Origin: a virus
Length of the DNA: 64,000 nt
IMG/VR virus record: IMGVR_UViG_3300036893_000013
Location: 48,038 to 112,037 of that record
Strand: one strand, 5' to 3'
Each line of letters starts with the position of its first letter. Within the stretch, counting starts at the first letter, position 1. This document shows, piece after piece, positions 3,001 through 51,009 of this stretch. A program made the translations under genes and the position numbers. Under the pieces are notes generated by a model, which saw only the letters and a list, made by a program, of their open reading frames with translations, had not been told where the DNA came from and did no database searches.

Positions 3001-3630
3001 TCCTATTAACTGTTCTACATTACCATTAGGATCAATGATGAAGGAGTTAAGTTCATAAGGAGTAAAATTGTACGGATTCAAGACAGCGTATAAGTTGCCG
3101 TTCGCTACTGCAATTTCTTGAAGAACAGTGGAATAAGGGATTCTCGTTTGAAGGGTATTAACCCATTTCTTCTGATTAGCTCCATCCCCCCAAAATAGAA
3201 CGTTCCCCACACTCTGCATATAACTCTGTCCAGAATACGGACTTTTATTCCAGATATCTATCTGACCGTTATTTGAGGCATCATATAAGGCAGATTTGGT
3301 ATCCACCATAGTTTTTATTTGTTCAGTATTAGCATTGAATAATCTAAACTCATAAAAACCATTTATATTACTCCACGTGTTACTATTCCACACGGAATTC
3401 CCCGGACGGCGAACCACTGTAAGTCGTTGGCTGAGTTCCAGATTTTCTCCCCCAAGAAAGGCATCTCCTCTAGGCCCGTAAAATTTCTCTTCCAAACGGG
3501 TAGAAGCGGCATCTCGTATAGCTGCGCGGTTGCTCCATAGCCCAGTAGTCCATCTTGCCCCCTGATAAAGAGCAGACTTCCTAGAAGGGCGGGGAGGTTG
3601 GGCACCGGCTACTTGTAGAGGATTAGGCAT
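1..3630 (-). CDS. Tail nozzle/tubular protein B-like virion protein (partial, C-terminus off left edge)
   Basis: The frame is open from the ATG at 3630 to the window edge, 1210 codons, so the gene is incomplete. The ATG shares a base with the TAA of the upstream lectin gene (TAATG), which fixes the start. The N-terminal 170 residues are Arg- and aromatic-rich, with motifs such as LTVVRRPGNS and LFWGDGANQKKW that resemble tail-tubular-protein-B/nozzle proteins of podoviruses (recalled, not searched). Residues of about 290-640 hold five copies of a Gly-rich unit with core G(T/Q)GYxxG(E/D), a repeat common in phage tail and baseplate proteins. Unlike its neighbours it has no signal peptide, so it is probably a true virion part. 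It could also be a large baseplate or fibre protein. Confidence 0.75.
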   Translation of the reverse strand, partial: MPNPLQVAGAQPPRPSRKSALYQGARWTTGLWSNRAAIRDAASTRLEEKFYGPRGDAFLGGENLELSQRLTVVRRPGNSVWNSNTWSNINGFYEFRLFNANTEQIKTMVDTKSALYDASNNGQIDIWNKSPYSGQSYMQSVGNVLFWGDGANQKKWVNTLQTRIPYSTVLQEIAVANGNLYAVLNPYNFTPYELNSFIIDPNGNVEQLIGTVVQLSSFYIYNSTFVFTMRATDVNSNPLPTASQVLQSGLQLYFSGDSLVTQVLGSTSVTLTIENIVGPINTASLYFGGQGYTVGEIVSLSQTTPAGSMNGQVKVTSVGTSAGAGYINGSNVSTTTSGIGVNCTLNITTSGGSLTGATVAVGGTGYAVGDFIFPEETSGSGGYFQVATVSISAVTGVTLCTGVATAIAIQVAGQGYYSATNIPTTATSGTGLAVNIVSSGTQFSAEVPNTYAGGPLTSASVAASGTGYSVGEAIYPVVPVGSPASGAVFLVESINGIPATIGLVYQGISFTGYTAASGLATTTSGTGTLATFNILTVSGGQIATFSLGSGGTGYNVGDLVYPTQVSGAGASYTVSTVSGTTITGLTVHNAGYLPYTVASGVSTTTNGTGTGATVNITGVLVGGITAGTLGTAGTGYAIGDRLFPTQSGTSGTAQFRVASLTGSTGGVATIQITDVGTGYSTENGVATTAGISGTGCTVNIVALGSSYYPPTTDLEIPTVNSGGNPISSYTANNAVQWPLTEGTTTIDGSALWINRGSSVDGGIVWNWGMAGGSTAPNVIVNNAVSGWKANTYYNRWQFIIITVSGSKYLQQLVDSGVSGGTAPWTTSSTIVGQITTDGTAKWKCLSNDSDTTLTWAAHTIYSSGHIIEDTPGSTNCVYQLQPYTGIMTQGSNFPVYYWQCNSQKNSDVGAAGELPNGPPGSTFNTPMSQNGTQPVSTATGSGTMSSFFLSAQGGTNAVEVGVFSYGDGTLSGTLSTLFPSAMENLSIAMLPVFIIPAPGTYTFTFGHQVAMFWGIGNGSISLNVTNITVNNNEVTVQCDRTLASLVSVGVQLTFAGLSNATFLNGETVSIDSVSGMTFTAPLNHSNYGPAADVGTADSGATLVPSAIGPMTWNNSGNPNTYNFSTGTPIKGYKIMSANYPSSGLSIASSIVQVTFPAAGVYPAEIQYGVWYHSTSGETLPTTSPALPFANNTISFYMVYSPPGSTINYNV

Positions 3631-4847
3631 TAATGAATAGAACCACCTGAAATTTTTCCGTAAAGGCCACTATTAGTGGTGGCAGTGTTGATGGTATAAG
3701 CCCCATAAGAACTTACCGTTGAATCTGAAAGTGTACTTGTGCCTGCCACTACGTTAAGAGTAGTCACAGTACTATTGATAGTTATGGTATTACTTGATCC
3801 CGAAAGAGAGGTGCCGGTACTGCATCCGGTTCCCGCGCCGTTTGTTACTGGAGTTGTGCCATTCTCCGTATAACACATAATTGTAGTTCCAGAATTTGAG
3901 TTAGAACAGGTAACTGTTATGGAAGAACTTGAGACACCAGACCCGGGAGTACAGGTAGGAGCAGTTGCATTTCCACCGCTGTTCACGGTGTAACTGAAGT
4001 TATAAACCCAAAGAGGTCCGACTGTATTTCCATCAGTTCCAGCCGTAAGACCCACATAAGCTGTGTTCATGCTGCCGACGATTGACGGAATGTTAACGCT
4101 AGTCCATACATTATGAAAGCAAGTCGAAGAAGAGGTTGGAGTACACGTTCCTCCAGCAGTAATATCATAGAGATTTAGAGTGAAATTTGAACCATCATAA
4201 ATAACTGTGGCCGAATAAGTGTCTCCAGTCGTGGTGTTAACGGTCGTGGCTGGAGAATTTAATGGTACCGGAGAGGTACTGATCTTACTAGGAGTGTAGT
4301 CCGAGTTATACGGAGGAATACAAGGAGACTGACTAGCTTGATAAATCTGAGCACTGCTGTAACTGAATGGAAAGGGCCACACAGCACTAGATGACAGTGT
4401 ACTGATCTGATCGAGTTCTAGAGCAAAAACATTATTAGGTTCGGGAGGTACGAAAGCTTGATAAAATCCACCTTCGCATCCGGCCCCGGCAACGAAGGTC
4501 TGTCCTTGTGCTCCTCCCAGATTGTTCGTATTGTTCAGAGTGAAAGCAATATTGACACCGTTTGGTACGAAGGTAAAAGTAGAGGTAAAAGCTTGTACAT
4601 TAACGGCGTAGTAATAAATCAAACTTGAAGACCCATGCCCGGCTCCGTTAGGCTGCAAAAGAATATTACTACTTGAAACACTTGAATCTGAGTTATTGAA
4701 AAACTGGAAACCCGGATTTCCATATTGCTGTACACTACACGTTCCAGATGTCGCAGCAATCCAGTTTCCTTGTGTGCAACTGAATATTGACTGCGCCGAA
4801 ACAAGGGAACTGAAGCAAATAATGCCAAGAATGAGTAGTATTTTCAT
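3630..4847 (-). CDS. Secreted L-type lectin-like protein with chitobiase-C-like tail (copy 2)
   Basis: The 405-residue product starts with a clear Sec signal peptide (MKILLILGIICFSSLVSA, cleavage near AQ). The body has legume-lectin-type signatures: NNVFALELDQ, then YSATVIYDGSNFTLNLYD, then a NIPSIVG...AYVGLTAGT segment. The last ~100 residues form a Thr/Ser/Gly-rich beta-sandwich resembling CHB_HEX_C domains. It is a clear paralogue of the protein at 18610-19875, sharing GAGCE(G/A)GFYQAF and PEPNNVFALELD. It lies between a beta-helix protein and the nozzle-like protein, so host-surface or polysaccharide binding is likely. The starting ATG directly follows the upstream stop. The ligand cannot be told from sequence. 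Confidence 0.75.
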   Translation of the reverse strand: MKILLILGIICFSSLVSAQSIFSCTQGNWIAATSGTCSVQQYGNPGFQFFNNSDSSVSSSNILLQPNGAGHGSSSLIYYYAVNVQAFTSTFTFVPNGVNIAFTLNNTNNLGGAQGQTFVAGAGCEGGFYQAFVPPEPNNVFALELDQISTLSSSAVWPFPFSYSSAQIYQASQSPCIPPYNSDYTPSKISTSPVPLNSPATTVNTTTGDTYSATVIYDGSNFTLNLYDITAGGTCTPTSSSTCFHNVWTSVNIPSIVGSMNTAYVGLTAGTDGNTVGPLWVYNFSYTVNSGGNATAPTCTPGSGVSSSSITVTCSNSNSGTTIMCYTENGTTPVTNGAGTGCSTGTSLSGSSNTITINSTVTTLNVVAGTSTLSDSTVSSYGAYTINTATTNSGLYGKISGGSIH

Positions 4848-6272
4848 TTACTGTATTGTTGTGCCAGAATTATATACATCACCGGAGTTAAATGCACTAG
4901 CAGAGACACACCCGGGGGTTACAAGTCCGGTTGGTAAATTGGTGGAACATAGCCACTGCGGATAGAGCGGATCATACCGACTAGTATTTGAGACTGTCTG
5001 ATAGCCGTATGCTGCTGCTACAGAAGTTGGGGTAAAATTAGAAATTAGTGTAGCCATACACGCTACGGTACTCGCATACGAAGAACAAGATGGTGCTCCC
5101 GGAACTGTTGGATTACTAAACGAAACGGCTGTTCCGATGGTATTATTAGGACCATAAGCAAATGATCCTGAAGTATAAATTATAGTATTGTTTCCACTTA
5201 CTCCCGAAGCATATGTGCTGTACAAATGATCGGTCGCATTTCCGTTGCCGACAGCCATCGCGTAGATCGCATTACCACCAAGACCCGTAGCTGTCGATGT
5301 CTGGAGAAGGTTGTTCCAAGCCTGCACATTGTAAGCTGAATAAAGAAATAGTTCTCCAACATCTGTGCGATTTTGATGTGTATCCCGAAGATTACCCCAA
5401 GAGGTATTGTAAAGCATATACACATTACCTAGCGAAGAACCCACTGAATTATAAGGCACTTCAAGGCCGCTGCTGCCGTTCCCTACAGTAATATTGTTTT
5501 GTACAACGACTTGTTGAGAATATGGAGTACCACTCGACTGGGAATAATCTAATGAATCTACGATAATTCCTTCTCCATCTGTTGAACCTCCTCCATTACA
5601 GGTGGCAGGATCATAGTTGGCATAAGAAAAATTACCCGCAATATAGATATGAGTGCCGGGACTGGTGTCTTTAGCAAGAGGTTGATAGACACTTATACCA
5701 CTATAACAGGCAGTATTTCCCTGAGCAGCGTTATAAACTATATCCCCTACAATTGCAATGTAATCTACCGAGTAGCTAGTACCGTCATTAAATGTGGAAA
5801 ATCCACCTCCAATACAGCCGTTAGCTATATCGTCAACAAAGGCAACATCGTACACTTCTGAAGGTGTAGTTTGATTAGGGGAGGCCATAAAGCATCCTAT
5901 GTATTGCTGAGGAGCAGAAGAACCCTGAACTTCCCACCCAGCAATCATCCAATGCGGCTTATCTACCCAGAAGTAGCCCGTAGAACCACTAATGATACAG
6001 GCATCAAAGGTGGTACATTTAAGAGTGGCAAAACAGTGGCCTGACCCAGTAACCGCGCCCCATTCCCCTTGCCAGAAGTTCCACCCGCTATACGAAGAAG
6101 AAGCAGCGGCTGTGATTATATCACCACAATTAACGGCATGGTTTGGACTGAGCCAAGGTGTTCCGGTAGAGGTTCCGTTATTTGAGTCACTTCCCGACGG
6201 CGACAGATAGTAGTTTGTCGCAAAACAGGGAATGGCAAACAGAGATATAAATATTAGAAGATATCTTATCAT
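4848..6272 (-). CDS. Secreted right-handed beta-helix protein (pectate-lyase-like / depolymerase candidate)
   Basis: A longer frame reaches back to 6314, but the ATG at 6272 overlaps the upstream stop (TAATG) and begins a signal peptide (MIRYLLIFISLFAIPCFA), giving 474 residues. The mature start NYYLSPSGSDSNNGTSTGTP is the classic opening of secreted parallel beta-helix polysaccharide lyases and related proteins. Repeated short strands with Asn/Gly turns follow (VVVQNNITVGN, VQAWNNLLQ). No catalytic triad can be assigned by eye. It may cleave capsule, exopolysaccharide or pectin-like glycans around the host. The signal peptide suggests that the lysing or infected cell exports it, unlike ordinary tailspikes. 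Confidence 0.65.
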   Translation of the reverse strand: MIRYLLIFISLFAIPCFATNYYLSPSGSDSNNGTSTGTPWLSPNHAVNCGDIITAAASSSYSGWNFWQGEWGAVTGSGHCFATLKCTTFDACIISGSTGYFWVDKPHWMIAGWEVQGSSAPQQYIGCFMASPNQTTPSEVYDVAFVDDIANGCIGGGFSTFNDGTSYSVDYIAIVGDIVYNAAQGNTACYSGISVYQPLAKDTSPGTHIYIAGNFSYANYDPATCNGGGSTDGEGIIVDSLDYSQSSGTPYSQQVVVQNNITVGNGSSGLEVPYNSVGSSLGNVYMLYNTSWGNLRDTHQNRTDVGELFLYSAYNVQAWNNLLQTSTATGLGGNAIYAMAVGNGNATDHLYSTYASGVSGNNTIIYTSGSFAYGPNNTIGTAVSFSNPTVPGAPSCSSYASTVACMATLISNFTPTSVAAAYGYQTVSNTSRYDPLYPQWLCSTNLPTGLVTPGCVSASAFNSGDVYNSGTTIQ

Positions 6273-8467
6273 TAGTTGTGCGCCATCATTCCAATCTGGT
6301 TGCCTGACCCCCACGATGCTGTTGGAATAGTGATTGTTGACGGTAGTTGCCCGTTTGTGGATGTTTGACTTACAGGCTGACTGGCATTATATGGGGTGAA
6401 ACCTTTCCACTCTTCGTCAAGATTAAGAACAGTGGCATTTCCGGTTACCGCCATATAATAATACTGACCGGCTGCTGGAGCAGTTAAAGTTACAGGGGAA
6501 GATTGGGTAATTGCCTGATCCCATTGACCAGTATGAGTTATGGCTACACCTTGAGAACCGGAACCAATATCAGCAACTAGAGGGCAACTTGTTCCACCTA
6601 GAGCACAAGGACCATAAATACCTATGTCGTAGTAATGTCCAGAAGTAGTGTCATCAGTAGAAACTTGGAAATCTAGATAAGAAATTTTCTGAGCGGTCGC
6701 TGGCCCGTTTACGATTACCCAAGTATAAACAGTTCCAGCAGTTCCTACTCCGAAACTTCCCTGACTGGTTGAACCCATTGAAATGGGCCAGATAGAAGCA
6801 GAAGTGGAACTTCCGCTAGCACAGTTTGCCACATAAGCATCTGTTGCAATATCAGTGTTACTTGCACAAGATTGTGTCGGAGCGGTAGGAGTTCCTGTAA
6901 GAGCAGGAGAAGCAGCAAGTACAACGTTGCCAGTACCAGTACTTGATACATACCCAATTGCCGACCATCCGCTAGATGGAGTACCTGCGGTCATGAACTG
7001 GGTTCCGGAAGGAGCAGTTGTACTCGGTTGCCATCCGTAAGCAGTAGCAGAAGTCGAGGAGAATCCACCAATAGCGAAGTCGTGTGTAGGGATAGTTTGA
7101 TTTGTAGTGTTACCACCTAAATACATCATACCGGCATCTCCAGAAGGGGGAGCAGAACCAATTGGTCCAGCGGAAGCTGTAATACCTCCGCTACCGGCGT
7201 ATGTTAAGGTATTAGCAGTTGTTGCCCCATCATCGAGGTTAGAATCCCCACTAACCGTGCTACCAGTTGACGAATACCATGTAATATGACCAGCATTTCC
7301 ACTACTAACCGTGCCCCCGCCTCCCACAAAAGTACATGTGGATATTGCACTAGAAGGAGTTCCGCAGCTTAAAAGTGGTGTCGAATTGGTGGGTCCAGTA
7401 GCTGGTAGCTGGAGAGCATAAGCTGTAAAAGAAGCTGACGAGGGTCCCATAAATCCAGTGGTATTCGAAGTAACGGCCTGATTTGCTGTATTGCCTATAA
7501 GAGAAATATATCCAGAATGCACACCGTCTGAAGTCGCTGAAACACCAGAACTAAAAGCCGCAGAAGTACCAGTAAGTGCTCCGGTTAAAGTGCCTCCTGT
7601 AAGAGGAAGATCGAGAGTGGCACTGTTAGCCACACACGAGGCGCAAGTACCAGTTAAGTTGGTAATTACTCCGGAAGCGGGAGTTCCTAACGCAGGAGTG
7701 ATAAGGGTAAGATTGGTTGCACTCAATCCACTAGGAAGAGTTGTGCTTTCGGAGGGAACTCCGCTGCCGTTAGTACTTACAACTGCATTATTTACAGGAG
7801 TAACTCCAGCCAAAGCCGAAGTAGTACCTGCGCTATATACGATTGAATTAGTAGCTAAGTTAGCAAGAGTACCGAGATTTGCTGCTGTTGCTGCGGTTGG
7901 ACCCGCACTTGTTGAATCAAATTGAAATCCGGAAATAGCCGATCCACCTACTTGAGATACTGTTCCTGTTTGTGTATACCACGTAACATCGTATTGGGGT
8001 TCAGCGGTTACTGTTCCTGATCCGGAAGGAGTTTGGCAAGCTCCATCTCCTCTGAGATACGTAGAGGAACTACAAGTTCCCGACCATAACCCATACACAT
8101 CCGCTGCGACTGCTATAGAAGGTACACCGGTAGTTGTAGTATTTTTTAAAATACCTGTTCCAAGGCCGGACAGAAGGGTTCCGTTAATACCTTTTACAGT
8201 AGTAGCACCCCCTGTAGAAGTACTGACAGCATCGCCAGTAAGGGCATTGAAGGTACCACTTCCACCAAAAGCTGTCCATGTGTTTGTTGCAGAACAGTAG
8301 TATGGAGATTCAATCCCACCAGAAAGCAGGTAGAAATTAATCACAGGACTACTAACCGAGCAAGTCGCGGGGAGACTAGAACCACTACCGTAACTTACAA
8401 CTCCGCTTTGTGGTCCCGTCTGCGCGAGAGCGGGGAGTGCGAAAAATAAAAATAAGAGTTTTTTCAT
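6272..8467 (-). CDS. Tail fibre-like protein with signal peptide and collagen-free repeat shaft
   Basis: The 731-residue protein opens with MKKLLFLFFALPALAQ, a short Sec signal with AxA-Q cleavage. The middle is a low-complexity Gly/Thr/Ser shaft with fibre-type repeats such as TLITPALGTPASGVITNLTG and LPLTGGTLTGALTG, typical of phage and prophage tail fibres. The C-terminal ~180 residues, after a CASNTDIATDAYVANC segment that often marks fibre junctions, look like a compact beta domain. Stop and next start overlap as TAATG. The shaft strongly supports a fibre. Its signal peptide is the odd part. Confidence 0.7.
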   Translation of the reverse strand: MKKLLFLFFALPALAQTGPQSGVVSYGSGSSLPATCSVSSPVINFYLLSGGIESPYYCSATNTWTAFGGSGTFNALTGDAVSTSTGGATTVKGINGTLLSGLGTGILKNTTTTGVPSIAVAADVYGLWSGTCSSSTYLRGDGACQTPSGSGTVTAEPQYDVTWYTQTGTVSQVGGSAISGFQFDSTSAGPTAATAANLGTLANLATNSIVYSAGTTSALAGVTPVNNAVVSTNGSGVPSESTTLPSGLSATNLTLITPALGTPASGVITNLTGTCASCVANSATLDLPLTGGTLTGALTGTSAAFSSGVSATSDGVHSGYISLIGNTANQAVTSNTTGFMGPSSASFTAYALQLPATGPTNSTPLLSCGTPSSAISTCTFVGGGGTVSSGNAGHITWYSSTGSTVSGDSNLDDGATTANTLTYAGSGGITASAGPIGSAPPSGDAGMMYLGGNTTNQTIPTHDFAIGGFSSTSATAYGWQPSTTAPSGTQFMTAGTPSSGWSAIGYVSSTGTGNVVLAASPALTGTPTAPTQSCASNTDIATDAYVANCASGSSTSASIWPISMGSTSQGSFGVGTAGTVYTWVIVNGPATAQKISYLDFQVSTDDTTSGHYYDIGIYGPCALGGTSCPLVADIGSGSQGVAITHTGQWDQAITQSSPVTLTAPAAGQYYYMAVTGNATVLNLDEEWKGFTPYNASQPVSQTSTNGQLPSTITIPTASWGSGNQIGMMAHN

Positions 8468-8470
8468 ATT

Positions 8471-9580
8471 TTAGTATCCGTAGTAATAGCCGTAATTAAA
8501 GGGACTTGCAGGACCAACAGGATAGAACGGACCTAAAACAGAATCTCCGGACATTTGCGTATCGGGGAAAATACTCCATGCCTGTTCTTCCCTCTCTCCT
8601 GCTCTTATAGCTTGCTCAATTTGTTCATGCCACATCTGATTCTGCATAGCTGCGCGGGGGGAATTAGCATGTTGAAGGCATTTAGCAACAAATCCTTCCC
8701 GGAAAAGATAAGCTAAATCATCTGGAACTGGAGAAATAGTCTGGTCTAAATACTTGAATCTAGGTGCTCTACGTTGGTAAACAATCCAAAATAACCAAGT
8801 AAATCCGCCTTCAGCAGGCAGAGGATTTACTCTTATAGCAAAGCCATTAGGATTAGCTACTGTCCAAGTAAGAGTACCGTCAGGTACCGTAGTACCCGGG
8901 GGCGAGGCGGGAGGAAGTTCCGGAGCAGTAGAACCCGAAGTTCCAAAATTAGCACCCGTACTGTTATAGGGATTAGGTGTCGGTAAAGGAATATTAGTCC
9001 CTTGATATCCTTGAACATTAGGAGTAAGGCCCATGATAGAAGTGTCTAGGAATAGCATGTTCCCATTAGCATCTACGATTTGTTGAATAGGAGTTTGCGG
9101 AGAACCAGAAGTACCATATCCGCAGTTGTATACTGTATTAGCAGTCCAAGTACCAAAATTACACTGGTTATTAGGTATAAAGCATACTATACTGGGATTT
9201 CCCTGATAAGGAGTAAGTCCCATGTCTCTATTAGTTTCCATAAGAAACAGTGGTTTTGGACAGAGATTGCCTGTATTAGTGTTATTATTGATATCAATTC
9301 TAAATGCTGACGTTAGCCAGCCCACGTCAGTTAGATTAGTAATATAGTCTTGCTGTAGAGAATTAGATAAGAATAAGGGAACATAAGACGCATTCCATCT
9401 CCAATTCAAACCTTGCGATAGAATTTTTTGAAGAACATCGTTAGCGAAGGTCAGCGCTGGTTCAAAAGTATAGCCACCCGCAGGAAGAATTGGATTACAC
9501 TCAGAAAAACTTCTAGCATAATCAACTACTTCCTGTAGGGTTATAGAGCTAGGTGGAACTAGATTTGGAAGAACAGGCAT
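8471..9580 (-). CDS. Tail adaptor / head-tail connector-like protein (copy 2)
   Basis: The 369-residue protein has an N-terminal helical region (LQEVVDYARSFSE) followed by a segment LNWRWNASYVPLFL...QQDYITNL..VGWL. The same order, a W-x-WN, a Pro, a (Q/S)DY and a GW(L/I) motif, occurs in the shorter protein at 19876-20610. The C-terminal part also matches, with LFREGFVAK here against IYNQGYLAK there. This pattern resembles podoviral gp11-type tail adaptors (tail tubular protein A). The long Pro/Gly-rich insert (~150-250) is absent from the copy at 19876. There is no signal peptide. Position next to the fibres fits a connector role. Confidence 0.6.
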   Translation of the reverse strand: MPVLPNLVPPSSITLQEVVDYARSFSECNPILPAGGYTFEPALTFANDVLQKILSQGLNWRWNASYVPLFLSNSLQQDYITNLTDVGWLTSAFRIDINNNTNTGNLCPKPLFLMETNRDMGLTPYQGNPSIVCFIPNNQCNFGTWTANTVYNCGYGTSGSPQTPIQQIVDANGNMLFLDTSIMGLTPNVQGYQGTNIPLPTPNPYNSTGANFGTSGSTAPELPPASPPGTTVPDGTLTWTVANPNGFAIRVNPLPAEGGFTWLFWIVYQRRAPRFKYLDQTISPVPDDLAYLFREGFVAKCLQHANSPRAAMQNQMWHEQIEQAIRAGEREEQAWSIFPDTQMSGDSVLGPFYPVGPASPFNYGYYYGY

Positions 9581-9588
9581 GGGTTTCC

Positions 9589-10260
9589 TTAATTAATCAC
9601 TGAACCTGTCAGGTTTTGTGGAGTGGGTGGAGTTGGTATAGAGGGGGCAGTAGCCACGACAACTGAAAAGGTATTACTAGGGGCACTTTGCGTACCCGCC
9701 GCGTCAACTGAAACTACGTAGTAATCATATGTAGTCGAAGCATCGATTGTTTTATCAGTATAGGTTGTAGTTTGTATAGCTGTTGGTGTCAGTTGTATTG
9801 CTGACCCTCCAGCAACAGATCGAAATACAAGGTACCCAGTTACAGCCGGAGTGCTAGTAGTAGGAGCTTGCCATACGAGTGATACACCACAAGCCGGATT
9901 AGGATCAGTAGCACAGAACAGAGCGGGAGTTACTGGAGTTACTGGGGTTACTGGAGGCGTTGTTCCCGCAGCATTGACCGTCAGCGTCAATTTCGTCGTC
10001 GTATAAACACCAGCCGTGGGCGTGGCCTGCTGAACCTCGATATTATAGGTTCCTGCTGCCGTTGGAGTACCTGAAAGAATTCCAGTGGTGTTATCGTAAC
10101 TTAATCCGTCTGCTGATATCTCCTGTATACCGTTAATTGTGACCAGATAACCGCCGTTTGAAACAGGTGCCGCAATAGCCTGACTGAAAGGTACCCCTAC
10201 AGTTGCGGTTGTGGTTTGAGCGTAAACAGTAGATGCCAGCAAAAATAGTATTAGTTTCAT
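9589..10260 (-). CDS. Secreted Ig-like / fibronectin-III protein
   Basis: The 223-residue product starts with a signal peptide (MKLILFLLASTVYAQ). Residues of about 20-95 form a putative Ig (He_PIG-type) domain recognisable by LSYDNTTGILSGTPTAAGTY. After a PVTPVTPVTP linker, residues of about 110-205 look like an FN3 domain (SLVWQAPTTSTPAVTGYLVF..TYTDKTIDASTTYDYYVVSVD). Such domains on phage proteins usually bind surface glycans. The ATG overlaps the stop of the GH30 gene (ATGA), so the two are translationally coupled and may act together on polysaccharide. Confidence 0.7.
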   Translation of the reverse strand: MKLILFLLASTVYAQTTTATVGVPFSQAIAAPVSNGGYLVTINGIQEISADGLSYDNTTGILSGTPTAAGTYNIEVQQATPTAGVYTTTKLTLTVNAAGTTPPVTPVTPVTPALFCATDPNPACGVSLVWQAPTTSTPAVTGYLVFRSVAGGSAIQLTPTAIQTTTYTDKTIDASTTYDYYVVSVDAAGTQSAPSNTFSVVVATAPSIPTPPTPQNLTGSVIN

Positions 10261-13200: not shown

Positions 13201-14474
13201 CTTTGAGTTGCAGAAGTAATGGTTGGCGTAAGAGTCGTGAACGTCGGGGCGTTCGTGATGTTGAAAACTTGGGAGAGCGAGGACCCGGTGTAGTTAGTCG
13301 CGATGATGACCAGTGTGTTTGAAGAAGTTTGTTGATACGCTGAAACTGTAACTCCGCTTTGCGGGTTGTGCGTAGCACTAATACGGTAGTAGCCGGGTCG
13401 AACGAATTTGCTGTACTGTGCTAATACGTAAGCCCTATCTGCAACCGCATATCCGCTTGCAGCATTGGCTATAAGCGAGCCGTTGCTTGTTGTTCCTGCC
13501 CCTCCAGCCTGATTGAAGTCGATTAGCTGCCAGAAAAGCCACATGTTAGCTCCATCTTGCATCCGCTGATCGATGATCGCACCCCAACACAAACCGTCTG
13601 AAATCGTGGCGGTGAAGCTTGAATACGAACCGCACGCCGGACCATAGCTGGGACCTTGTGATGCTTCTGTTTCCCACCATTTCTTTCCGCTTGCCCAACC
13701 CGCAGGATAAGTGGCAGGACTTACTGGAGGTACTCCACCAGAAAGAAAAGCATCGTAATCGTGCCAATCTGCGACTCCAAGATAAGTCGTGCAGGAGGGG
13801 TCTGTACCGCAAGTTCCACCACTCGATGATACCGCACTGTACTGGTAAGAAGTGGGCATGAGGATTAGTGCCGGGATGCTTTGGGAAGCGAAGGTCGGTC
13901 CTAGATTAGTTTTGATAAAAGTATCGATGTTTCCCGAAGACCATAAGGCACTGTCATACGTCTCGCATTCTTCAGGCTCGTTTTGGACTCCCATTCCGTA
14001 TAACTGAATACCATAGTAGGTCGAGAGGCTTTTGTAGAAGTTTGCGCCCCAGATTGCGTAGTCGCCGTAATGTCCAGATGCAAGTGCTCCTGAACCGGGA
14101 TTACATATTGTGCTGTTATTGGTGGTATATATGGCGGGCGGGGACCAAGGATGAGAGATAATTCTCACGTTTTGAGATGCAGCGTACTGCAAGTCGGCAA
14201 TTACAGATCCAGCGCATCCAGAATTAACAGTCGTACAACTTTGGCCGGGACCATCCTGATGGCCATTAGTCTGCCCTATCCGCAAAACTGACAAACCGAG
14301 TTGCCCTGTTCCATTTCCGAAGAAAAATTGCTGGTGTGCATTAGACATGGAAGTAGTCCAGCCTTCGTTCGAACCACCGAAGCCATCGATTATCTGGGCT
14401 GGGGCAGTCCAGTTGATGGTGGCCTGTCCAGCAAGCGAGAGCGGAAAGAGCAGCAGAAGTATAAGTCTTTTCAT
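10257..14474 (-). CDS. Secreted multidomain GH30 glycoside hydrolase with beta-helix and InlB-like domains
   Basis: The start at 14474 (TAATG with the preceding stop, then signal peptide MKRLILLLLFPLSLAGQ) is preferred over an upstream in-frame codon at 14528. The product has 1405 residues. Residues ~18-455 match a GH30-type (beta/alpha)8 plus beta domain: IIDGFGGSNEGW, acid/base Glu in GVQNEPEE (E166) and likely nucleophile in KWWETEAS (E270). Residues ~460-535, 1140-1210 and 1320-1390 are InlB-like repeats (G-x-FxGWSG pattern). Residues ~540-1130 look like a second catalytic-type right-handed beta-helix. Residues ~1215-1310 resemble CHB_HEX_C. GH30 enzymes attack xylan, beta-1,6-glucan or galactan; the substrate here is unknown. 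Export is implied by the signal peptide. Confidence 0.8.
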   Translation of the reverse strand: MKRLILLLLFPLSLAGQATINWTAPAQIIDGFGGSNEGWTTSMSNAHQQFFFGNGTGQLGLSVLRIGQTNGHQDGPGQSCTTVNSGCAGSVIADLQYAASQNVRIISHPWSPPAIYTTNNSTICNPGSGALASGHYGDYAIWGANFYKSLSTYYGIQLYGMGVQNEPEECETYDSALWSSGNIDTFIKTNLGPTFASQSIPALILMPTSYQYSAVSSSGGTCGTDPSCTTYLGVADWHDYDAFLSGGVPPVSPATYPAGWASGKKWWETEASQGPSYGPACGSYSSFTATISDGLCWGAIIDQRMQDGANMWLFWQLIDFNQAGGAGTTSNGSLIANAASGYAVADRAYVLAQYSKFVRPGYYRISATHNPQSGVTVSAYQQTSSNTLVIIATNYTGSSLSQVFNITNAPTFTTLTPTITSATQSIQQLANITVSSQSFTYTIPAQSITTFVSTGSTPTNYSLVVTATNGTISGANCATGTYASGTSIGPCTFTPSAGYTFSSGWSGTGSCSGVSGTGTASCTLSSNATLSASGTSTGCGNYTAASCNQSDVNSAINGPAHIACNGDIISIPAGTCTWTTDVVVTASIDITGPNAGANTGTSTFGSGSNTLTIKSNNPSGPIWFLQPTYNGTSNVTKLESMNLDPINGSTSLGGVVFIEGTSTSAGFPQVRVDNIGFGISTQWTESGNGDNTVDMIRVDDAIGVVDHSTLPTGSLSNHLYTAQMSSYLGVGQFGDNSWAQPDSFGGLTNWFAENNQVNLNGSTFNDCTEAGITVNQSGGCRVVNRFNHSIGYNAFAYTAVHGTDSTGRPRSGRHTETYGNVLTCTLNCGDAVVSFRGGTGIAFGNTGISSGGAYFNQIMDGTTYRIALANPFFGTCGGLTSIDPGDTVDNVTYVSSTLTGGGTTTITDTSKSWTTNQWAPYGAPYFFYDTTQSFGAQITSNTNNTLTMYAEINNGASYNPGDTYKIIRATVCEDQWGRGQGAYISGAAVPTPTAPMNEVLDPAYEWDDTITPASFLGQQFGTNYAGQTIQNRDFYTDDWKAGGLSGPTAQTSTTVPFNGSTTCNAGSGNYTCGVGFGALANRPSSCTTGVGYWATDQGNWNSSGNGFGQGELFKCTSTNTWTIAYIPAQYPHPLIGGSTLVSLTVSTSGSGTGTITGTNSLTGSYTSGTTIGPLTATATGGSTFAGWTVSGNAACSGTTNPCPSFVLTTATTVTATFTGGTSTCGNPYQNPPNYSGTYSTPPVSVSWTSPTSGCSMFMTLDGSAPTCSSPAYAAQSFSTTTTMRVIACQAGYTSSAVEGGTWVITSGVSLTTIASNGYITGTNCATASYVSGTLIGPCTPVANPGYAFSGWSGASGSAVCVGTINPCPQFSLNQASTFTANFSSVPLPPPIGLSGNLIAKQVQLK

Positions 14475-16504
14475 TATTGTAAAGCCACACTCACGTTGAT
14501 GAAATTTTCCGTGGTCCCAGTCGTCCATGTTGGGGTATAGAGTCCCGCTGATGCCTGCGTATAATGACCTCCCGCTTGGGTGGCTCCTGCCGAATTGGTT
14601 GCGTTTATATCGAACGAAAAAGGAGATGGAGCACTAAGAGCTACCCCAGCCCCTATTCCAATGAACGTGAGGACTAGAGAATTTGCTGCGGTAGTAGTAA
14701 GGGAAGAACCTGTACAACTGGACGAGCAGGAGGCCGTGCCGTAACTGGACAGCACGATCCCTGTTGTCGTGGCATTTGATATCTGTTCTAAGACTCCACC
14801 CATCCCAGCATAAGAAGTTGAGGTTCCTGATACTGTGACCGTACAAGAACCGGTGACATTTGCAACCCCTGTCCAGATTGACTGGCCCGAGGACCCGGTG
14901 GTTGGTGAACCCTGTGCAGTCCAAGTGGGTACACAACCTGAAGGCGTGTTCCATGCTGTAACGTTAATTCCAAGACCCCAAAGTACCAGCGTATTTCCAG
15001 TCGTGATTGATAATGTGACCGTGCTAGACGGATTTACACTGTAGGCTCCTACCACACCAGCAGCAGATACAAAAGTCGGATTACCGCCCCCTCCACCTGA
15101 TCCTCCACCAAGCACAATCCAAGTTCCGGAAGACCCATTACAAGCAACGAAAGCAAAATTTGATCCGCCACTAACATAAGTAGCACCAGAAATAGCGGAT
15201 GTTGAATCTGTAACTGTTGCGGTGGGCCAAGGTTGAGACATGCTACTGCTACAAGTAGGAATAGGATTTGATGAGGCATTGCCAGCGGTGTATGATATGA
15301 CACCGGGACCTGTACCAGCTATAACTACAGGAACATGGGCAGTCAGATCACCACTGTTGGTAATATTGTAATCGAAGGGTAGATATGAAGTGGCTGTTGT
15401 AGCTGTAGCCGCCATAACTCCATACCCGGCAATTTGGCCGGTAATAGAACCTGCGGGAGTACACCACGTACCGTTACCACACCAGACAGTTGAACCAGAG
15501 GCTCCGGTTCCCCCATTAAAATTAGCTATTTGTAGATTTCCTGTAACTCCACCAGCACCCGTCCCAGCTAGGTTAATTGCGGGAATAACCGAGGAGTTCA
15601 ACAATCCACTTGAAAGCTGTGGAATGTCTGAGCCTGAATTACCGACAGTATAACTTGTTCCCCACCCAGAACCAGTTGAGTTTGCAAGTCCGGCCCCGGG
15701 GTAGGTTGAAGAGGCGCAAGAAGAACAAGAAATACTAATACCTAAAGCAGTGGTGGTAATAGAAAGGGGAGAGTTGGCAGTAATATTTGTGCCTATATAG
15801 CTACCCAGATCATATAGTTGAGGAGCTATTAGACTTCCGGTAGGTTCTTCTCCTAGAAAATAAGCATGTCCAGTAGTGGTCTGGCCCGATACATAGGATG
15901 TAGTGTTAGCGCTGGACTGATAAGGAATAGAGCCTAAACTACCCCCAGCTAGTCCTCCGGCATATCCAGTGGTATTAGCACCATTGTTAGGGATATCTCC
16001 TGAAACTAAAGCTCCATAATTAGGAACACCGGCAGACCCAGTATGATTTCCCCATATATAATGAGCAGAAGTACTACCTAAAGAGAGGGTAACTCCTCCG
16101 ACAGAATCATTATTAGTGTAAAAACTTCCATCGCCGGAAACCGAACTAACTCCGGAACCAGAACCCCCTCCAGTATTACCAATCTGAACAATGGTATTGT
16201 TGCATTGACTATATGAAGAACAAACTTTCTCAACCACTCTTGTTCCGGTCTGAACGTAGTAACTATATACTCCGAATGCATTAGCAGGAAAAGGTTGAGT
16301 TAAAGGAGCGGTAAGTGCCTGATCAGAATAAACTGTTTGCGGTGTAGAACATTGTGCCAGCGAATTATATGTACAAACTGATATCTGAGCATTTGGGATA
16401 ATAGTAGCATAGTTACCGCCAGATTTGGTTATAGCAGTATTCCATCTCTGGGCAGACTGGCCTAGAAGCATGGTAGGAAATAATAGCAGCAATAAGTATT
16501 TCAT
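14474..16504 (-). CDS. Secreted fibre-like protein, YSDxALT N-terminal domain (copy 2)
   Basis: The 676-residue protein starts with a signal peptide (MKYLLLLLFPTMLLGQ) and shares its first ~115 residues with the next gene upstream: SAQRW, IIPNAQISVC, VYSDQALTAPLTQPF, FGVYSYYV and VVEKVCSSYSQC. The domain ends in IGNTGGG, followed by a Gly/Ser/Thr-rich fibre-type shaft and a C-terminal beta domain with several Cys pairs. The domain order (short N-terminal beta domain, shaft, receptor-type tip) fits a fibre or secreted adhesin. It is coupled by TAATG on both sides. Confidence 0.65.
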   Translation of the reverse strand: MKYLLLLLFPTMLLGQSAQRWNTAITKSGGNYATIIPNAQISVCTYNSLAQCSTPQTVYSDQALTAPLTQPFPANAFGVYSYYVQTGTRVVEKVCSSYSQCNNTIVQIGNTGGGSGSGVSSVSGDGSFYTNNDSVGGVTLSLGSTSAHYIWGNHTGSAGVPNYGALVSGDIPNNGANTTGYAGGLAGGSLGSIPYQSSANTTSYVSGQTTTGHAYFLGEEPTGSLIAPQLYDLGSYIGTNITANSPLSITTTALGISISCSSCASSTYPGAGLANSTGSGWGTSYTVGNSGSDIPQLSSGLLNSSVIPAINLAGTGAGGVTGNLQIANFNGGTGASGSTVWCGNGTWCTPAGSITGQIAGYGVMAATATTATSYLPFDYNITNSGDLTAHVPVVIAGTGPGVISYTAGNASSNPIPTCSSSMSQPWPTATVTDSTSAISGATYVSGGSNFAFVACNGSSGTWIVLGGGSGGGGGNPTFVSAAGVVGAYSVNPSSTVTLSITTGNTLVLWGLGINVTAWNTPSGCVPTWTAQGSPTTGSSGQSIWTGVANVTGSCTVTVSGTSTSYAGMGGVLEQISNATTTGIVLSSYGTASCSSSCTGSSLTTTAANSLVLTFIGIGAGVALSAPSPFSFDINATNSAGATQAGGHYTQASAGLYTPTWTTGTTENFINVSVALQ

Positions 16505-18309
16505 TAGTTTCCTAGATACTCCAGCTTATAGTGAACATCGTAACTTATGGTTCCGCTGGCCGTTACTAACGGAGTAATAGTAGTATTTACGGCTGCGTAG
16601 AAGACGGCACTGTACTGGTCCCACGCAGGAGCACTGGACCAGATATCGTTCCAAGTAAAGGTGTTGCCCGAAGTATGGGCATTTTGATAAGTAACTGTTA
16701 AAGTAGTATGGGGCGAACTAGTTTCACTAACCGCATTTACATAATATGTAAACCGATACATACCTGCTACGGGGGTGGCGTAGCCGGAGGGAGCATAAGT
16801 AGTTGTCTGAGCGGTAGCAGATAAAGATTGCACTATAGAAGAACTTGTGTATTGACTTATTGGAAAACCAACATAACTGCTGCCGTTCCAATAACATAGA
16901 TTTATTTGATTTGAGAAGGTTCCACCACCAACACTGCAATCAGTTGGAGTTTGACCGTCTGATACGAAACTTACCGATTGGTAAGCTGATCCCGGATTTG
17001 GTAGTCCCGCTATGTTTGTAATATAATTTAGGTTCGGCCAGTTAGGACTTATACCTAATGTATTTAGTGTAGAATTGTAATATAATGGGGGTTGAACTAG
17101 TAAATTTGAACTGCTTGGGGGAGCAGTTCCTGTATAATGAACTTCAAGACCCATTAGGGGAATATATATACTGCCCTGTCCATTACAGCAGCGGGAGGCA
17201 TTCATTTGAATAGCTGAATAGTTTGTAGGTAGGGCACTAAAAGCAACAGAAACTTGCCCCAACGGATAGTCTAGAGCAGGCTGTGAAGCTCCATTAACTC
17301 CTTGAAGCATAGAAGCTCCACCGGGGATGGTTCCGCCACCAGCACTATTTACCCACATACCCTCGAATTCGGAGTTTGCCATGCTAGAGGCTGATATCAT
17401 AAAAGCATATACAGCCGTTATGTTAGATTGAGTAACATAAGAAGGTAATGTAAAATTCGATACCGTAATACCAGAACTCCCTGTACCGTCTACAAGTCCT
17501 CCAAAATATTGTCCAGCAGCATTCTGATAGCAAATAGGATTCGCACCTATACCAGTGTTGGTAATTGTACAACTTGTTCCAAATACTAGCACGTACTGGC
17601 CTGTACCTTGTGGTACATATTGGGTAGCTAAGTTGGAAGCTGCTACATATGCACTTAAATCTCCTCCACTATCGCTTTGGAAAGTTACAGCTACATTTCC
17701 TGTTGGAGGGGTTGGGGTAGTATCATTAAAGTTCAGCAGGACTTGATCTGTAAGATTGGTTCCATTATGCTGTAAAACAAGTTGTTTAGCGCACCCGGAA
17801 GTAGTAGCTCCTCCTAAAGAATCTATACAGAGAAGAGAACCAGAAGAACCTATAGTCCCAGATGAGAGTAGTTTACTGTCAGTTCCTTGAACACTATAGC
17901 TACTTCCCCAAGCTGTACCTGTAGAAACGGGAACTCCCGCTGGGGGATAGACCATACTTCCATTTCCGGTATTGCCTATATAAACATCGTAAAAACTACA
18001 TTGATTATATGGCGCACATACTTGCTCAACTACATGAGTTCCGCCATCGACATAATAGCTATATACCCCTACTCCATTTGCAGTAAGAGGTTGAGTAATT
18101 CCTTGGGTCAAAGCCGGGTCAGAATATATAGAAATTTGACTTATACAATTAAGAGAAGAGTTCCATTCACAAACTGTAATTTCTGCGTTGGGAATAACAG
18201 TAGAAAAATTACTGCCTGAAGCAGGTACCGTTGCTGTACTCCATCTCTGGGCAGACTGACAAATTCCGGAAAGTGGAAAAAGTAGAAACAACAGCAAAAG
18301 CTTATTCAT
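16504..18309 (-). CDS. Secreted fibre-like protein, YSDxALT N-terminal domain (copy 1)
   Basis: The 601-residue paralogue of the following gene has signal peptide MNKLLLLFLLFPLSGICQ and the same N-terminal domain (SAQRWSTA, VIPNAEITVCEWN, IYSDPALTQGITQPL, VGVYSYYVDGG, VVEQVCAPYNQC, IGNTGNG). The rest diverges: a shorter shaft, then a 140-residue C-terminal beta region (FTYYVNAVSETSSPHTTLTV...YDVHYKLEYLG) resembling fibre tips. Pairing of two divergent tips on one shared N-terminal domain suggests alternative receptor or glycan specificities. The ATG overlaps the preceding small membrane gene by 8 bases. Confidence 0.65.
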   Translation of the reverse strand: MNKLLLLFLLFPLSGICQSAQRWSTATVPASGSNFSTVIPNAEITVCEWNSSLNCISQISIYSDPALTQGITQPLTANGVGVYSYYVDGGTHVVEQVCAPYNQCSFYDVYIGNTGNGSMVYPPAGVPVSTGTAWGSSYSVQGTDSKLLSSGTIGSSGSLLCIDSLGGATTSGCAKQLVLQHNGTNLTDQVLLNFNDTTPTPPTGNVAVTFQSDSGGDLSAYVAASNLATQYVPQGTGQYVLVFGTSCTITNTGIGANPICYQNAAGQYFGGLVDGTGSSGITVSNFTLPSYVTQSNITAVYAFMISASSMANSEFEGMWVNSAGGGTIPGGASMLQGVNGASQPALDYPLGQVSVAFSALPTNYSAIQMNASRCCNGQGSIYIPLMGLEVHYTGTAPPSSSNLLVQPPLYYNSTLNTLGISPNWPNLNYITNIAGLPNPGSAYQSVSFVSDGQTPTDCSVGGGTFSNQINLCYWNGSSYVGFPISQYTSSSIVQSLSATAQTTTYAPSGYATPVAGMYRFTYYVNAVSETSSPHTTLTVTYQNAHTSGNTFTWNDIWSSAPAWDQYSAVFYAAVNTTITPLVTASGTISYDVHYKLEYLGN

Positions 18310-18601
18310 TCTTTTTACCCTTAAGGATGTTTAATATATCAGTAATACTGCCCGATGCCCTGTTAACTCCATAAGGAGCAGTAAAGAAAAGAACCAGCGC
18401 AGAAATTATTAAAGGAATTGCCGCTAACCATGAGTTGAGTATAACCACATCCGTGATTTTTATTATGTGATCAAATACTTCTATAAGGATATAAGATGAA
18501 ACTATAGCAAGAATTGTACTTAGGACACGACTACTCGATCCATTTCCGTTATCTGAATACACAGATTGGAAAAAAGCACAGAATTTACTTAGAAAGTTCA
18601 T
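18302..18601 (-). CDS. Small two-TM membrane protein (holin-like candidate)
   Basis: This 99-residue protein has a polar N-terminus, a first hydrophobic helix (~27-45, VLSTILAIVSSYILIEVF), a short turn, a second helix (~58-75, WLAAIPLIISALVLFFTAP) and a Lys-rich tail (LKGKKNE). Two helices with a charged C-terminus fit class II holins, and it is one of few holin candidates in the window. No endolysin is adjacent; its neighbours are secreted adhesins. It could equally be an export helper for those proteins. Function is inferred from topology only. Confidence 0.5.
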   Translation of the reverse strand: MNFLSKFCAFFQSVYSDNGNGSSSRVLSTILAIVSSYILIEVFDHIIKITDVVILNSWLAAIPLIISALVLFFTAPYGVNRASGSITDILNILKGKKNE

Positions 18602-18609
18602 AAATTTCC

Positions 18610-19875
18610 TTACGGTAGCGTGACTGTTTGCGCGGGAATGGTAACTGTAATGGGACTTCCGCTCGTCTGAATTGTCAGTGTTTGGGCTGGAATACTTAAA
18701 CTGGCGGGTAGGGTTACTGGAATGTTGATCGTGTAGGACACTATCGAGGTTGATGATTCGGTGTCGCCGGGTGCCGTTGCATAAGCTGCGATGCTTTCGT
18801 TCTGACCTACTGTAAGCGGCTTGGTATAGATCGTCTCTGCTGCGCCGTTGACACTGTAATAGATGGTTGCGCCGGGAGTTGTGTCCGAAATAGTGACTGT
18901 TTGTGCCAAAGTGTAAGTGCCCGGTCCCGGTAAAAAAGTCGGTGTATCAACCGTTGGTGCAGGGGCTGCAACAGAACCCGTTGTATAACTGAATTGACGG
19001 ATGACAAGAGGGGTAACGGCTCCGTAAGGAGTATCCGAAGTGCCTGCTGTTAATCCGGCATAAGCTGTACTTCCACCTACCAACGAAGGAATGTTTACGT
19101 TGGACCAAGTGTACGTAAAACATCCAGACCCGGGGCACGATCCACCAGCACTTACATCGTAGAGATTAAGCGTTACATTTGAGCCGTCGTAGCTAATAGT
19201 TGCTGAATAGGTGTCCCCTGTACTTGTATCACTTGAGGATACAGGAGAATTCAAAGAAACAGGAGCGGTGCTGATTTTGCTTAGAGCGTAATCAGTAGAG
19301 ACTGGAGCGGGGATACACGGCGATTGATTACTTGAGTAGATTTGTGTGCTACTGTGACTAAACACAAAAGGATACGGAGCACTTGCTGATAGGGTGCTGG
19401 CAGAGTCTAGTTCAAGAGCAAATACATTATTTGGCTCTGGGTTAGGTGGTGTTTCCTGATATCCGAATGCCTGATAAAATCCCGCTTCGCATCCTGCTCC
19501 AGCCGTGAAGGTTCCACCCTCTGCTGAATTTGTACCCGGCTGATTATTCGTGTTATTCAGAAGAAAAGCCACGTTAGCCCCATCTGGAATAAACTCAAAG
19601 CTGGCAACGAAATTGTTGACAGGTAGGGGTTTCTGGTATATAAGTGAAGTCGATCCATGACCAGACGGCAGTCCAACCATAGTCAAAGCTGATCCAGATA
19701 TACCTGAATTGTTCTGTGGTGAATTTAGATAGAAGGGAAAGTTTCCAAACCCACCTTGTACACTAACAGCACAAACTGCTGCGGGGACTGTATTAAAGCC
19801 AGAACAATTAAACCCGGTCTGACCATACACATACACAGGAAGAGATAGTATAAAAAGTAGTATAAAATTTTTCAT
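18610..19875 (-). CDS. Secreted L-type lectin-like protein with chitobiase-C-like tail (copy 1)
   Basis: The 421-residue protein has signal peptide MKNFILLFILSLPVYVYGQ, then an L-type lectin-like fold: SGHGSTSLIY, FEFIPDGANVAFLLNNTN, PEPNNVFALELD, YSATISYDGSNVTLNLYD, NIPSLVGG..AYAGLTAGT. Residues ~305-385 match the CHB_HEX_C pattern (FLPGPGTYTLAQTVTISD, GATIYYSVNG). The tail (SIPAQTLTIQTSGSPITVTIPAQTVTLP) is a Thr-rich repeat. It is a paralogue of 3630-4847 and sits next to a tail-adaptor paralogue, as that copy lies near the other adaptor. Probable role: carbohydrate binding at the host surface. Confidence 0.75.
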   Translation of the reverse strand: MKNFILLFILSLPVYVYGQTGFNCSGFNTVPAAVCAVSVQGGFGNFPFYLNSPQNNSGISGSALTMVGLPSGHGSTSLIYQKPLPVNNFVASFEFIPDGANVAFLLNNTNNQPGTNSAEGGTFTAGAGCEAGFYQAFGYQETPPNPEPNNVFALELDSASTLSASAPYPFVFSHSSTQIYSSNQSPCIPAPVSTDYALSKISTAPVSLNSPVSSSDTSTGDTYSATISYDGSNVTLNLYDVSAGGSCPGSGCFTYTWSNVNIPSLVGGSTAYAGLTAGTSDTPYGAVTPLVIRQFSYTTGSVAAPAPTVDTPTFLPGPGTYTLAQTVTISDTTPGATIYYSVNGAAETIYTKPLTVGQNESIAAYATAPGDTESSTSIVSYTINIPVTLPASLSIPAQTLTIQTSGSPITVTIPAQTVTLP

Positions 19876-20610
19876 TTAGCTTCCGCTACGACCTTGACGA
19901 CCAATTGCTCCGGTCTGGGACACAGATTGTGTTTCTCGTTGATAAATCAAATGTGGAAATAGAAAGATATTTTTCTGAGTTTCAGAAAGTCCTTCAGAGG
20001 CAGCAATAACTTGTTTAAGAAACTCCTGATGAGCAAAGGCAAATCTTTCATCGCCTTTATATTCATATGTTTTGGCTAAGTAGCCTTGGTTATATATATA
20101 AGAATAATAATCGGGAATGGGCGACCAAGTATCAAAAACAGTACCGAAAGTTGGAGACGATTGTTGATATAAGATATTTAGAACATAGGCTTTATCAGGT
20201 ACAGGCATCAATCTGAAAGTAATATTGCCGTTGTTATCGTCAAATACTGGTGAGATATAGGCAGGTTGTCCTAACCTAGTTTCACCGACTAACGCCATGT
20301 TAACTTCAAGCTCTTTGGAATAAAGGACTTGGTTGCCATCGGTATTAGGAGGAAATACTATGGTAGCTTTTTCAATCCAGCCAAAATTAGATACAGTAAC
20401 TTGATAGTCAGAAGTACCCGGTTCACAAACTATAGGAGGTACTGCTGCTCTATTCCAACGCCAAGCGAAGGGGGGAGCTAACATAAATTGACGTACCCAA
20501 TCGCCTATTGAATACGCCAATGCCCCACTATTCACGTAGAGTAGAGGGGCATTATAGATAAACCGAGAAGTAATATCTATCGTTGTTTTTAACTGGATCG
20601 AGGATGACAT
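19876..20610 (-). CDS. Tail adaptor / head-tail connector-like protein (copy 1)
   Basis: The 244-residue protein starts with a strand- and Tyr-rich N-terminus, then FAWRWNRAAVPPIVCEPGTS.YQVTVSNFGWIEKA, the W-x-WN...GW motif shared with 8471-9580. The second half (VLNILYQQSSPTFGTVFDTW, YIYNQGYLAKTYEYKGDERF) is the helical, Tyr-rich part found in gp11-like tail adaptor proteins of podoviruses. It lacks a signal peptide. It lies directly after the head genes in transcription order, which is the usual place for the adaptor. This is likely the canonical copy. Confidence 0.6.
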   Translation of the reverse strand: MSSSIQLKTTIDITSRFIYNAPLLYVNSGALAYSIGDWVRQFMLAPPFAWRWNRAAVPPIVCEPGTSDYQVTVSNFGWIEKATIVFPPNTDGNQVLYSKELEVNMALVGETRLGQPAYISPVFDDNNGNITFRLMPVPDKAYVLNILYQQSSPTFGTVFDTWSPIPDYYSYIYNQGYLAKTYEYKGDERFAFAHQEFLKQVIAASEGLSETQKNIFLFPHLIYQRETQSVSQTGAIGRQGRSGS

Positions 20611-38407: not shown

Positions 38408-38766
<359 letters not shown>

Positions 38767-38771
38767 AATTC

Positions 38772-38800: not shown

Positions 38801-38804
38801 CTAG

Positions 38805-51005: not shown

Positions 51006-51009
51006 CCTG

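What the first reader, a model, noticed from the sequence alone, without database searches (positions are those of the whole stretch)
3630..19875. Most proteins of a phage tail/adhesion island carry Sec signal peptides
Eight genes in this island (3630, 4848, 6272, 9589, 10257, 14474, 16504, 18610) begin with clear cleavable signal peptides ending in A-x-A/G-Q. Two more occur at 38407 and 38805. The flanking adaptor and nozzle-like genes lack them. Assembled virion fibres are normally cytoplasmic and need no export. Either these proteins are secreted by the infected cell (glycan degradation, decoys, biofilm release) or mature adhesins are built in the periplasm and joined to virions during lysis. 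I know of no standard description of such a system, and it is the best candidate here for an undescribed one.
Basis: partly seen in the sequence, partly recalled or inferred. Interest (0 to 1): 0.85.

Follow-up and report, generated by a model that had tools for sequence, protein, structure and literature searches.

The report
Phage tailspikes exported by signal peptides
A group of soil viruses, most likely of Acidobacteriota, appears to send its cell-binding spike proteins out of the host cytoplasm with cleavable export tags, so that they mature with disulphide bonds in the cell envelope and probably join the virus particles when the cell bursts, a route that I found described for no tailed virus.

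Summary
Eight genes between the tail-adaptor and nozzle genes, plus 38407 and 38805, begin with Sec/SPase I-type signal peptides; the rest of the 112-kb phage has essentially none. Three independent lines say that the signals work. (1) The same island carries signal peptides in related IMG/VR phages and, without detectable homology of the core genes, in the cultured Tunturiibacter phages Tunturi_1 and _2. (2) The mature proteins hold about five times more cysteine than other virion proteins, in even numbers (37 of 41, against 111 of 212 in proteins without a signal). (3) Fibre genes without a signal in the same islands are almost free of cysteine.

What they are: two island proteins and 17 from relatives share only signal peptide plus the next ~100 residues; the rest differs. 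That domain best matches, by profile and predicted fold, the head-binding domains of podophage tailspikes Pan3 and Pam1. This is tailspike anatomy (fixed docking part, swapped receptor part) with an export signal in front.

Best reading: spikes are exported, oxidised in the periplasm, and dock onto particles at lysis. Export and oxidation are strongly supported. Presence in virions and docking at lysis are inferred. The lectins, glycosidase, fn3 and beta-helix-like proteins may stay free.

The parts
18610..19875 (-). Exported lectin-like protein with CHB_HEX_C domain; signal peptide MKNFILLFILSLPVYVYG^Q; paralogue of 3630
   Evidence: SP score 8.3; Pfam CHB_HEX_C_1 E=3e-10; four invariant Cys in 6 homologues
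18302..18601 (-). Small membrane protein, probably holin-like (position and hydrophobicity only), no signal peptide
   Evidence: Sequence; similar small membrane genes at the same place in L012, L009, L026; no family hit
16504..18309 (-). Exported tailspike-like protein: signal peptide, then head-binding-like domain (17956-18255), variable C-terminal part
14474..16504 (-). Exported tailspike-like protein: signal peptide, then head-binding-like domain (16151-16459), variable C-terminal part
10257..14474 (-). Exported multidomain glycan-active protein (GH30-like, InlB-type repeats, CHB_HEX_C), signal peptide MKRLILLLLFPLSLA
   Evidence: SP 9.7; Pfam GH30 2e-5, Flg_new_2 6e-13, CHB_HEX_C_1 3e-9; 36 Cys
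9589..10260 (-). Exported fn3-domain protein, signal peptide MKLILFLLASTVYA^Q
   Evidence: SP 9.3; fn3 E=3e-4; PHROG tail protein 3e-6
8471..9580 (-). Tail adaptor B, no signal peptide
   Evidence: 34% identical to Tunturi_3 gp12, E=4e-53
6272..8467 (-). Exported fibre-like protein, signal peptide MKKLLFLFFALPALA^Q
   Evidence: SP 12.1; L007 homologue keeps signal and mature start
4848..6272 (-). Exported beta-helix-like protein (fold guessed from sequence), signal peptide MIRYLLIFISLFAIPCFA^T
   Evidence: SP 8.3, 12 Cys; no PDB sequence hit
3630..4847 (-). Exported lectin-like protein, signal peptide MKILLILGIICFSSLVSA^Q
   Evidence: SP 9.6; 51% identical to 18610
1..3632 (-). N-terminal part of the tail nozzle (1799 aa, continues beyond the window), no signal peptide
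   Evidence: 46% identical to Tunturi_3 gp19, E=9e-166
19876..20610 (-). Tail adaptor A, no signal peptide; anchor of the 42-locus survey
   Evidence: 31% identical to Tunturi_3 gp13, E=3e-38; 44 relatives
38407..38766 (-). Small exported protein outside the island (Pro/Thr run, coiled-coil-like), signal peptide ...GPAFA^Q; role unknown
   Evidence: SP 11.1; only a weak PHROG hit
38805..39236 (-). Small exported Cys-rich protein outside the island, signal peptide ...STILPA^Q; role unknown
   Evidence: SP 9.5; no PHROG hit

Best explanation
The island encodes the host-binding appendages of a short-tailed phage whose host is most likely an acidobacterium. Capsid, portal, adaptors and nozzle are made in the cytoplasm. 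The spike and adhesin proteins are sent through Sec into the periplasm, cut by signal peptidase I (often leaving an N-terminal glutamine), folded there and locked by disulphide bonds. When the holin/endolysin system opens the cell, cytoplasmic particles and periplasmic spikes meet, and the conserved N-terminal head-binding-like domain docks the spikes on the tail. Strongly supported by sequence: signals, export, disulphides. Supported by homology: the docking domain. Inferred: presence in virions, docking at lysis, and that the lectin, GH30, fn3 and beta-helix-like proteins also end up on particles (they may remain free glycan binders or depolymerases).
For: Signals on 8 island genes, start codons coupled to upstream stops. 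Recurrence in relatives with adaptor A, 47/187 downstream vs 9/370 upstream. Cultured Tunturi_1 and _2 carry five signal-bearing genes (gp12, 13, 14, 16, 17, annotated among others as tail spike, tail fibre, pectin lyase, virion structural) between tail and structural genes, with no detectable homology of core genes to this phage. Cysteine 2.22% vs 0.46% here (p=3e-16), 2.07% vs 0.41% in Tunturi_1 (p=1e-13); relatives 2.21% in signal-bearing vs 0.35% in signal-less fibres of the same islands (p=7e-15); even Cys counts in 37/41 vs 111/212. Head-binding-like domain at the mature N-terminus: profile hits only tailspike head-binding domains convincingly (9vyg E=6e-4, 7eeq 0.13); AlphaFold model pLDDT 83.6, top four PDB folds are Pam1 and Pan3 tailspikes, prob 1.00, BFVD hits are phage proteins, those named including tail spikes and depolymerases. 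In 99 of 109 pairs similarity lies within the first 200 residues. No membrane anchor or lipobox in the mature parts.
Against: No virion proteomics. The head-binding-like domain has a transthyretin-like fold that host surface proteins also use (weak CarboxypepD_reg hits in 4 of 20 members), and the PDB TM-scores are only about 0.5. Most island proteins lack that domain. The relative Tunturi_3, isolated on the same host strain as Tunturi_1, uses signal-less, Cys-poor fibres at the same place, so export is not required by the host or the adaptors. The signal predictor is a heuristic.
Confidence: 0.64

Rival explanations
1. The proteins are secreted by the infected cell and never become virion parts: glycan-degrading enzymes, lectins or decoys that loosen exopolysaccharide or block competing phages.
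For: GH30, chitobiase-C-terminal, fn3 and lectin-like proteins without a docking domain; no anchor in the mature proteins; P. gingivalis phages carry unknown exported genes obeying the Q-rule (PMC10367356).
Against: Genes lie between adaptor and nozzle genes, where Tunturi_3 keeps ordinary fibre genes; the conserved module is a tailspike head-binding-like domain with swapped C-termini.
Confidence: 0.2
2. The proteins are displayed on the host surface during infection (surface remodelling, superinfection exclusion), with a signal and first domain captured from host outer-membrane or surface proteins.
For: Signal plus transthyretin-like domain, and weak CarboxypepD_reg matches; the only plasmid hit of the lectin-like protein 18610, in its CHB_HEX_C part, is an acidobacterial plasmid.
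Against: No lipobox, barrel, transmembrane or other obvious surface anchor; tailspike domains outrank carboxypeptidase-type domains by fold (E 0.005 vs 0.33) and no CarboxypepD_reg chain appears in the profile search.
Confidence: 0.1
3. The N-terminal hydrophobic stretches are not export signals but uncleaved peptides that help virion attachment or are chance features.
For: Only heuristic prediction; two of eight score just below the cut-off.
Against: Cleavage motifs with Q at +1 in 9 of 10 here and 24 of 47 in relatives, also common on an acidobacterial plasmid (6 of 13 listed); even cysteine counts only in signal-bearing proteins.
Confidence: 0.04

Closest known systems
Podophage tailspikes with N-terminal head-binding domain (P22 gp9; cyanopodophages Pam1 7eeq and Pan3 9vyg)
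   Same: Conserved N-terminal docking-like domain followed by unrelated receptor or enzyme parts; genes lie beside tail adaptor and nozzle genes
   Different: Here a cleavable Sec signal precedes the docking-like domain and the protein carries many paired cysteines; P22 carries no such signal on its tail proteins
Exported phage lysis proteins (Sec-exported endolysin Lys44 of fOg44, SAR endolysins, T4 antiholin RI)
   Same: Phage proteins that use the host Sec route before lysis (PMC6116005, PMC8385771)
   Different: Those are lysis factors; these are large adhesin or spike-like proteins in the tail gene cluster
Unknown exported genes of Porphyromonas gingivalis phages that obey the Bacteroidetes Q-rule (PMC10367356)
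   Same: Phage genes with signals whose cleavage leaves N-terminal Q
   Different: Function unknown there and a different host phylum; not described as tailspikes
Tunturi_3 fibre genes gp14-gp18 (PP885686)
   Same: Same place in a related short-tailed phage, between adaptors and nozzle
   Different: No signal peptides and about 0.5% cysteine

Membership tests
Tailspike with head-binding domain | N-terminal head-binding domain fold | tested here: met
   14474 and 16504 families: profile E=6e-4 to Pan3, top four Foldseek PDB hits; moderate TM 0.5. Not found in the other six island proteins
Tailspike with head-binding domain | Conserved N-domain with divergent C-terminal receptor part | tested here: met
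   99 of 109 pairwise alignments confined to the first 200 aa
Tailspike with head-binding domain | Trimeric protein present in virions | not testable with these tools
   Needs proteomics or cryo-EM
Tailspike with head-binding domain | Made and assembled in the cytoplasm (no export signal); usual for the family, not strictly defining | tested here: not met
   Signal peptides plus even cysteine counts
Sec/SPase I substrates | Basic n-region, hydrophobic core, small residues at -3 and -1 | tested here: met
   6 of 8 island genes above the cut-off, 2 just below
Sec/SPase I substrates | Cleavage in vivo | not testable with these tools
   Needs N-terminal mass spectrometry
Exported phage lysis proteins | Muralytic, holin or spanin domain | tested here: not met
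   No such Pfam or PHROG hits in island proteins

The most novel reading that the evidence does not exclude
A branch of tailed phages finishes its virions outside the cytoplasm: disulphide-bonded tailspikes wait in the periplasm and are added to spikeless particles only when the cell lyses, so that newly released particles gain infectivity after release and co-lysing phages can exchange spikes.
Probability: 0.5. Interest if true: 0.9.

Novelty: new variant of a known kind. Interest (0 to 1): 0.8.

Why it matters
Tailed-phage assembly is treated as a cytoplasmic process. Exported, oxidised spikes would add a compartment to it, explain how soil phages make rugged disulphide-stabilised adhesins, allow spike mixing between co-infecting phages, and make host Sec, signal peptidase and disulphide-forming enzymes infection factors. 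Cultured phages (Tunturi_1 and _2) make it directly testable, with Tunturi_3 as a contrast on the same host strain. It also warns that annotators may discard such genes as host contamination.

Tried and rejected
Host contamination or moron reading: rejected, because the genes are translationally coupled inside the virion operon and recur in relatives and in cultured phages. Mis-called starts: rejected. General property of Acidobacteriota phages: rejected; Tunturi_3 (complete), and the parts of Tunturi_4 and _5 scanned (50 kb each), have no signals on tail genes. General property of phages of Q-rule hosts: none on virion genes in crAss001 (first 50 kb) and nearly all of Cellulophaga phi14:2, nor on P22 tail genes. 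Named-phage homologues: 16504 and a domain of the second subtype had no match in 50,697 phage records; Tunturi_1 gp12 and gp13 hit only Tunturi_1 and _2. Genome-collection scans for host copies found nothing. AlphaFold of the lectin-like domain failed (pLDDT 34), so its fold is not claimed. The C-terminal motif is post hoc and left as a lead.
Full report
CONTEXT. The window is bases 48038-112037 of a 112,037-base IMG/VR virus record. Terminase, portal, major capsid protein, two adaptors and nozzle are homologous to those of Tunturi_3, a cultured podovirus of Tunturiibacter psychrotolerans (Acidobacteriota): portal 35% (1e-110), capsid 35%, adaptors 31-34%, nozzle 46%. Tunturi_3 is the only portal relative in 50,697 phage records. 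An acidobacterial host is therefore likely but not shown. The Tunturi paper (PMC11924767) reports podovirus morphology for Tunturi_1-3; a term search of it found no signal peptides and no virion mass spectrometry.

OBSERVATION. A signal-peptide scorer calibrated on E. coli flags six of the eight island genes clearly and two (14474, 16504) just below the cut-off; homologues of those two in relatives score 7.1-10.4. Starts abut or overlap upstream stop codons. Outside the island only 38407 and 38805 and one spurious ORF are flagged. Adaptors, nozzle, capsid and portal are not.

RECURRENCE. Relatives found through the capsid and adaptor genes keep signal-bearing genes in the same place. In 42 loci with adaptor A, 47 of 187 downstream genes and 9 of 370 upstream genes have a signal (p = 3e-16; some contigs are near-duplicates). 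Within this one adaptor family many loci instead carry only signal-less fibres, as Tunturi_3 does. Tunturi_1 and _2, without detectable core-gene homology to the window phage, have five such genes nearly in a row, gp12, 13, 14, 16 and 17 (gp15 is unsigned), annotated by their depositors among others as tail spike, tail fibre, pectin lyase and virion structural proteins. P22 tail genes, crAss001 (first 50 kb), nearly all of Cellulophaga phi14:2, and the Tunturi_4 and _5 stretches scanned lack signals on tail or structural genes.

OXIDATIVE FOLDING. Mature signal-bearing proteins have 2.22% Cys against 0.46% in signal-less virion proteins of the same phage (p = 3e-16); in Tunturi_1 2.07% against 0.41% (p = 1e-13). 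In relatives, signal-bearing fibres have 2.21%; signal-less fibres of the same islands 0.35%, with 948- and 1521-residue fibres holding none (p = 7e-15). Cys counts are even in 37 of 41 non-redundant signal-bearing proteins with at least two Cys (p = 1e-7; one near-duplicate pair remains), against 111 of 212 others. One domain lost a whole second Cys pair (L051 13188). Paired cysteines are the mark of proteins that fold in an oxidising compartment, so the signals must act.

CLEAVAGE SITE. Q follows the predicted site in 9 of 10 window proteins (for 10257 and 16504 after shifting the automatic call by one or three residues), 4 of 5 in Tunturi_1, and 24 of 47 in relatives. It is also frequent on an acidobacterial plasmid (6 of 13 listed) and absent from the 12 E. 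coli controls. This resembles the Bacteroidetes Q-rule (PMC5837995), whose paper does not mention acidobacteria.

IDENTITY. The 14474 and 16504 proteins and homologues share the ~100 residues after the cleavage site: mature start Q-S/T-x-Q-R and four invariant Cys in one subtype, TTGYHR start and two Cys in the other. Against all PDB chains the profile finds tailspike N-terminal domains first (Pan3 9vyg E = 6e-4, Pam1 7eeq 0.13). Tunturi_1 gp12, searched alone, also has the Pan3 domain as its only (weak, E 0.27) hits. The AlphaFold model (pLDDT 83.6) has the Pam1 and Pan3 head-binding domains as its four best PDB folds and phage proteins, among the named ones tail spikes and depolymerases, in BFVD. 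Similarity between proteins stops after this domain in 99 of 109 pairs, the organisation described for P22-like tailspikes, whose head-binding domains are conserved while the rest differs (PMC2629481). Caveat: the fold is transthyretin-like, and weak CarboxypepD_reg and P22 Head_binding matches both occur.

OTHER PROTEINS. 18610 and 3630 are lectin-like paralogues (51% identical), with four invariant Cys in their family; 18610 has a CHB_HEX_C domain. 10257 combines a GH30-like domain, InlB-type repeats and CHB_HEX_C; 9589 has fn3. 4848 looks beta-helical by eye and has no PDB sequence hit. None has an anchor in its mature part. Whether they sit on virions is open.

MECHANISM. Signal, export and disulphides are strongly supported; the docking domain is supported by homology; virion incorporation is inferred. 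If the spikes are virion parts, the only consistent place for joining is after the inner membrane opens, at lysis. P22 tailspikes are known from classical work (my own knowledge, not fetched) to add to spikeless heads in vitro, so such docking is chemically plausible.

NOVELTY. Searches for signal peptides with tail fibres, tailspikes, virions and periplasm found exported lysis proteins and unknown Q-rule genes in P. gingivalis phages, but no exported tailspikes. The library is incomplete. I rate it a new variant of a known kind: tailspikes with a maturation route for which I found no precedent.

Noticed in passing
L047 4001, L076 11478, L012 6403, L030 19474-23028; window 10257 and 3630 C-termini: A short C-terminal beta-like motif (e.g. 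QITGNVVISGNFTIN, IQGNTVIKGKTVIQ) in signal-bearing proteins that lack the head-binding-like domain; strict pattern in 5 of 76 signal-bearing vs 2 of 920 other proteins, post hoc; perhaps a second docking signal.
   Followed up: partly
L019 8970-10714; L022 8815-10639; L026 8453-9457: The major capsid gene of several sister phages is split by an inserted reading frame (intron- or intein-like); the window phage has it intact.
   Followed up: no
window 48298-60854: Two small-protein families are expanded: 'CGTxxCLAGW' proteins (48298, 48611, 51786, 57234, 60357) and 'CCLGVLCxLAVxxG' proteins (52576, 58071, 58432), function unknown.
   Followed up: no
window 46824-47378: A TerC-like integral membrane protein gene in the phage; no close relative found in the genome collection.
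   Followed up: no
L006 5623-5988: A stand-alone 121-aa copy of the signal-less fibre N-terminal domain of Tunturi_3 gp14/gp15, just downstream of the nozzle gene, possibly an ordinary fibre adaptor.
   Followed up: partly
window 38009-39236: Two small exported proteins next to a putative metalloprotease-like gene (38009), possibly lysis or envelope functions.
   Followed up: no
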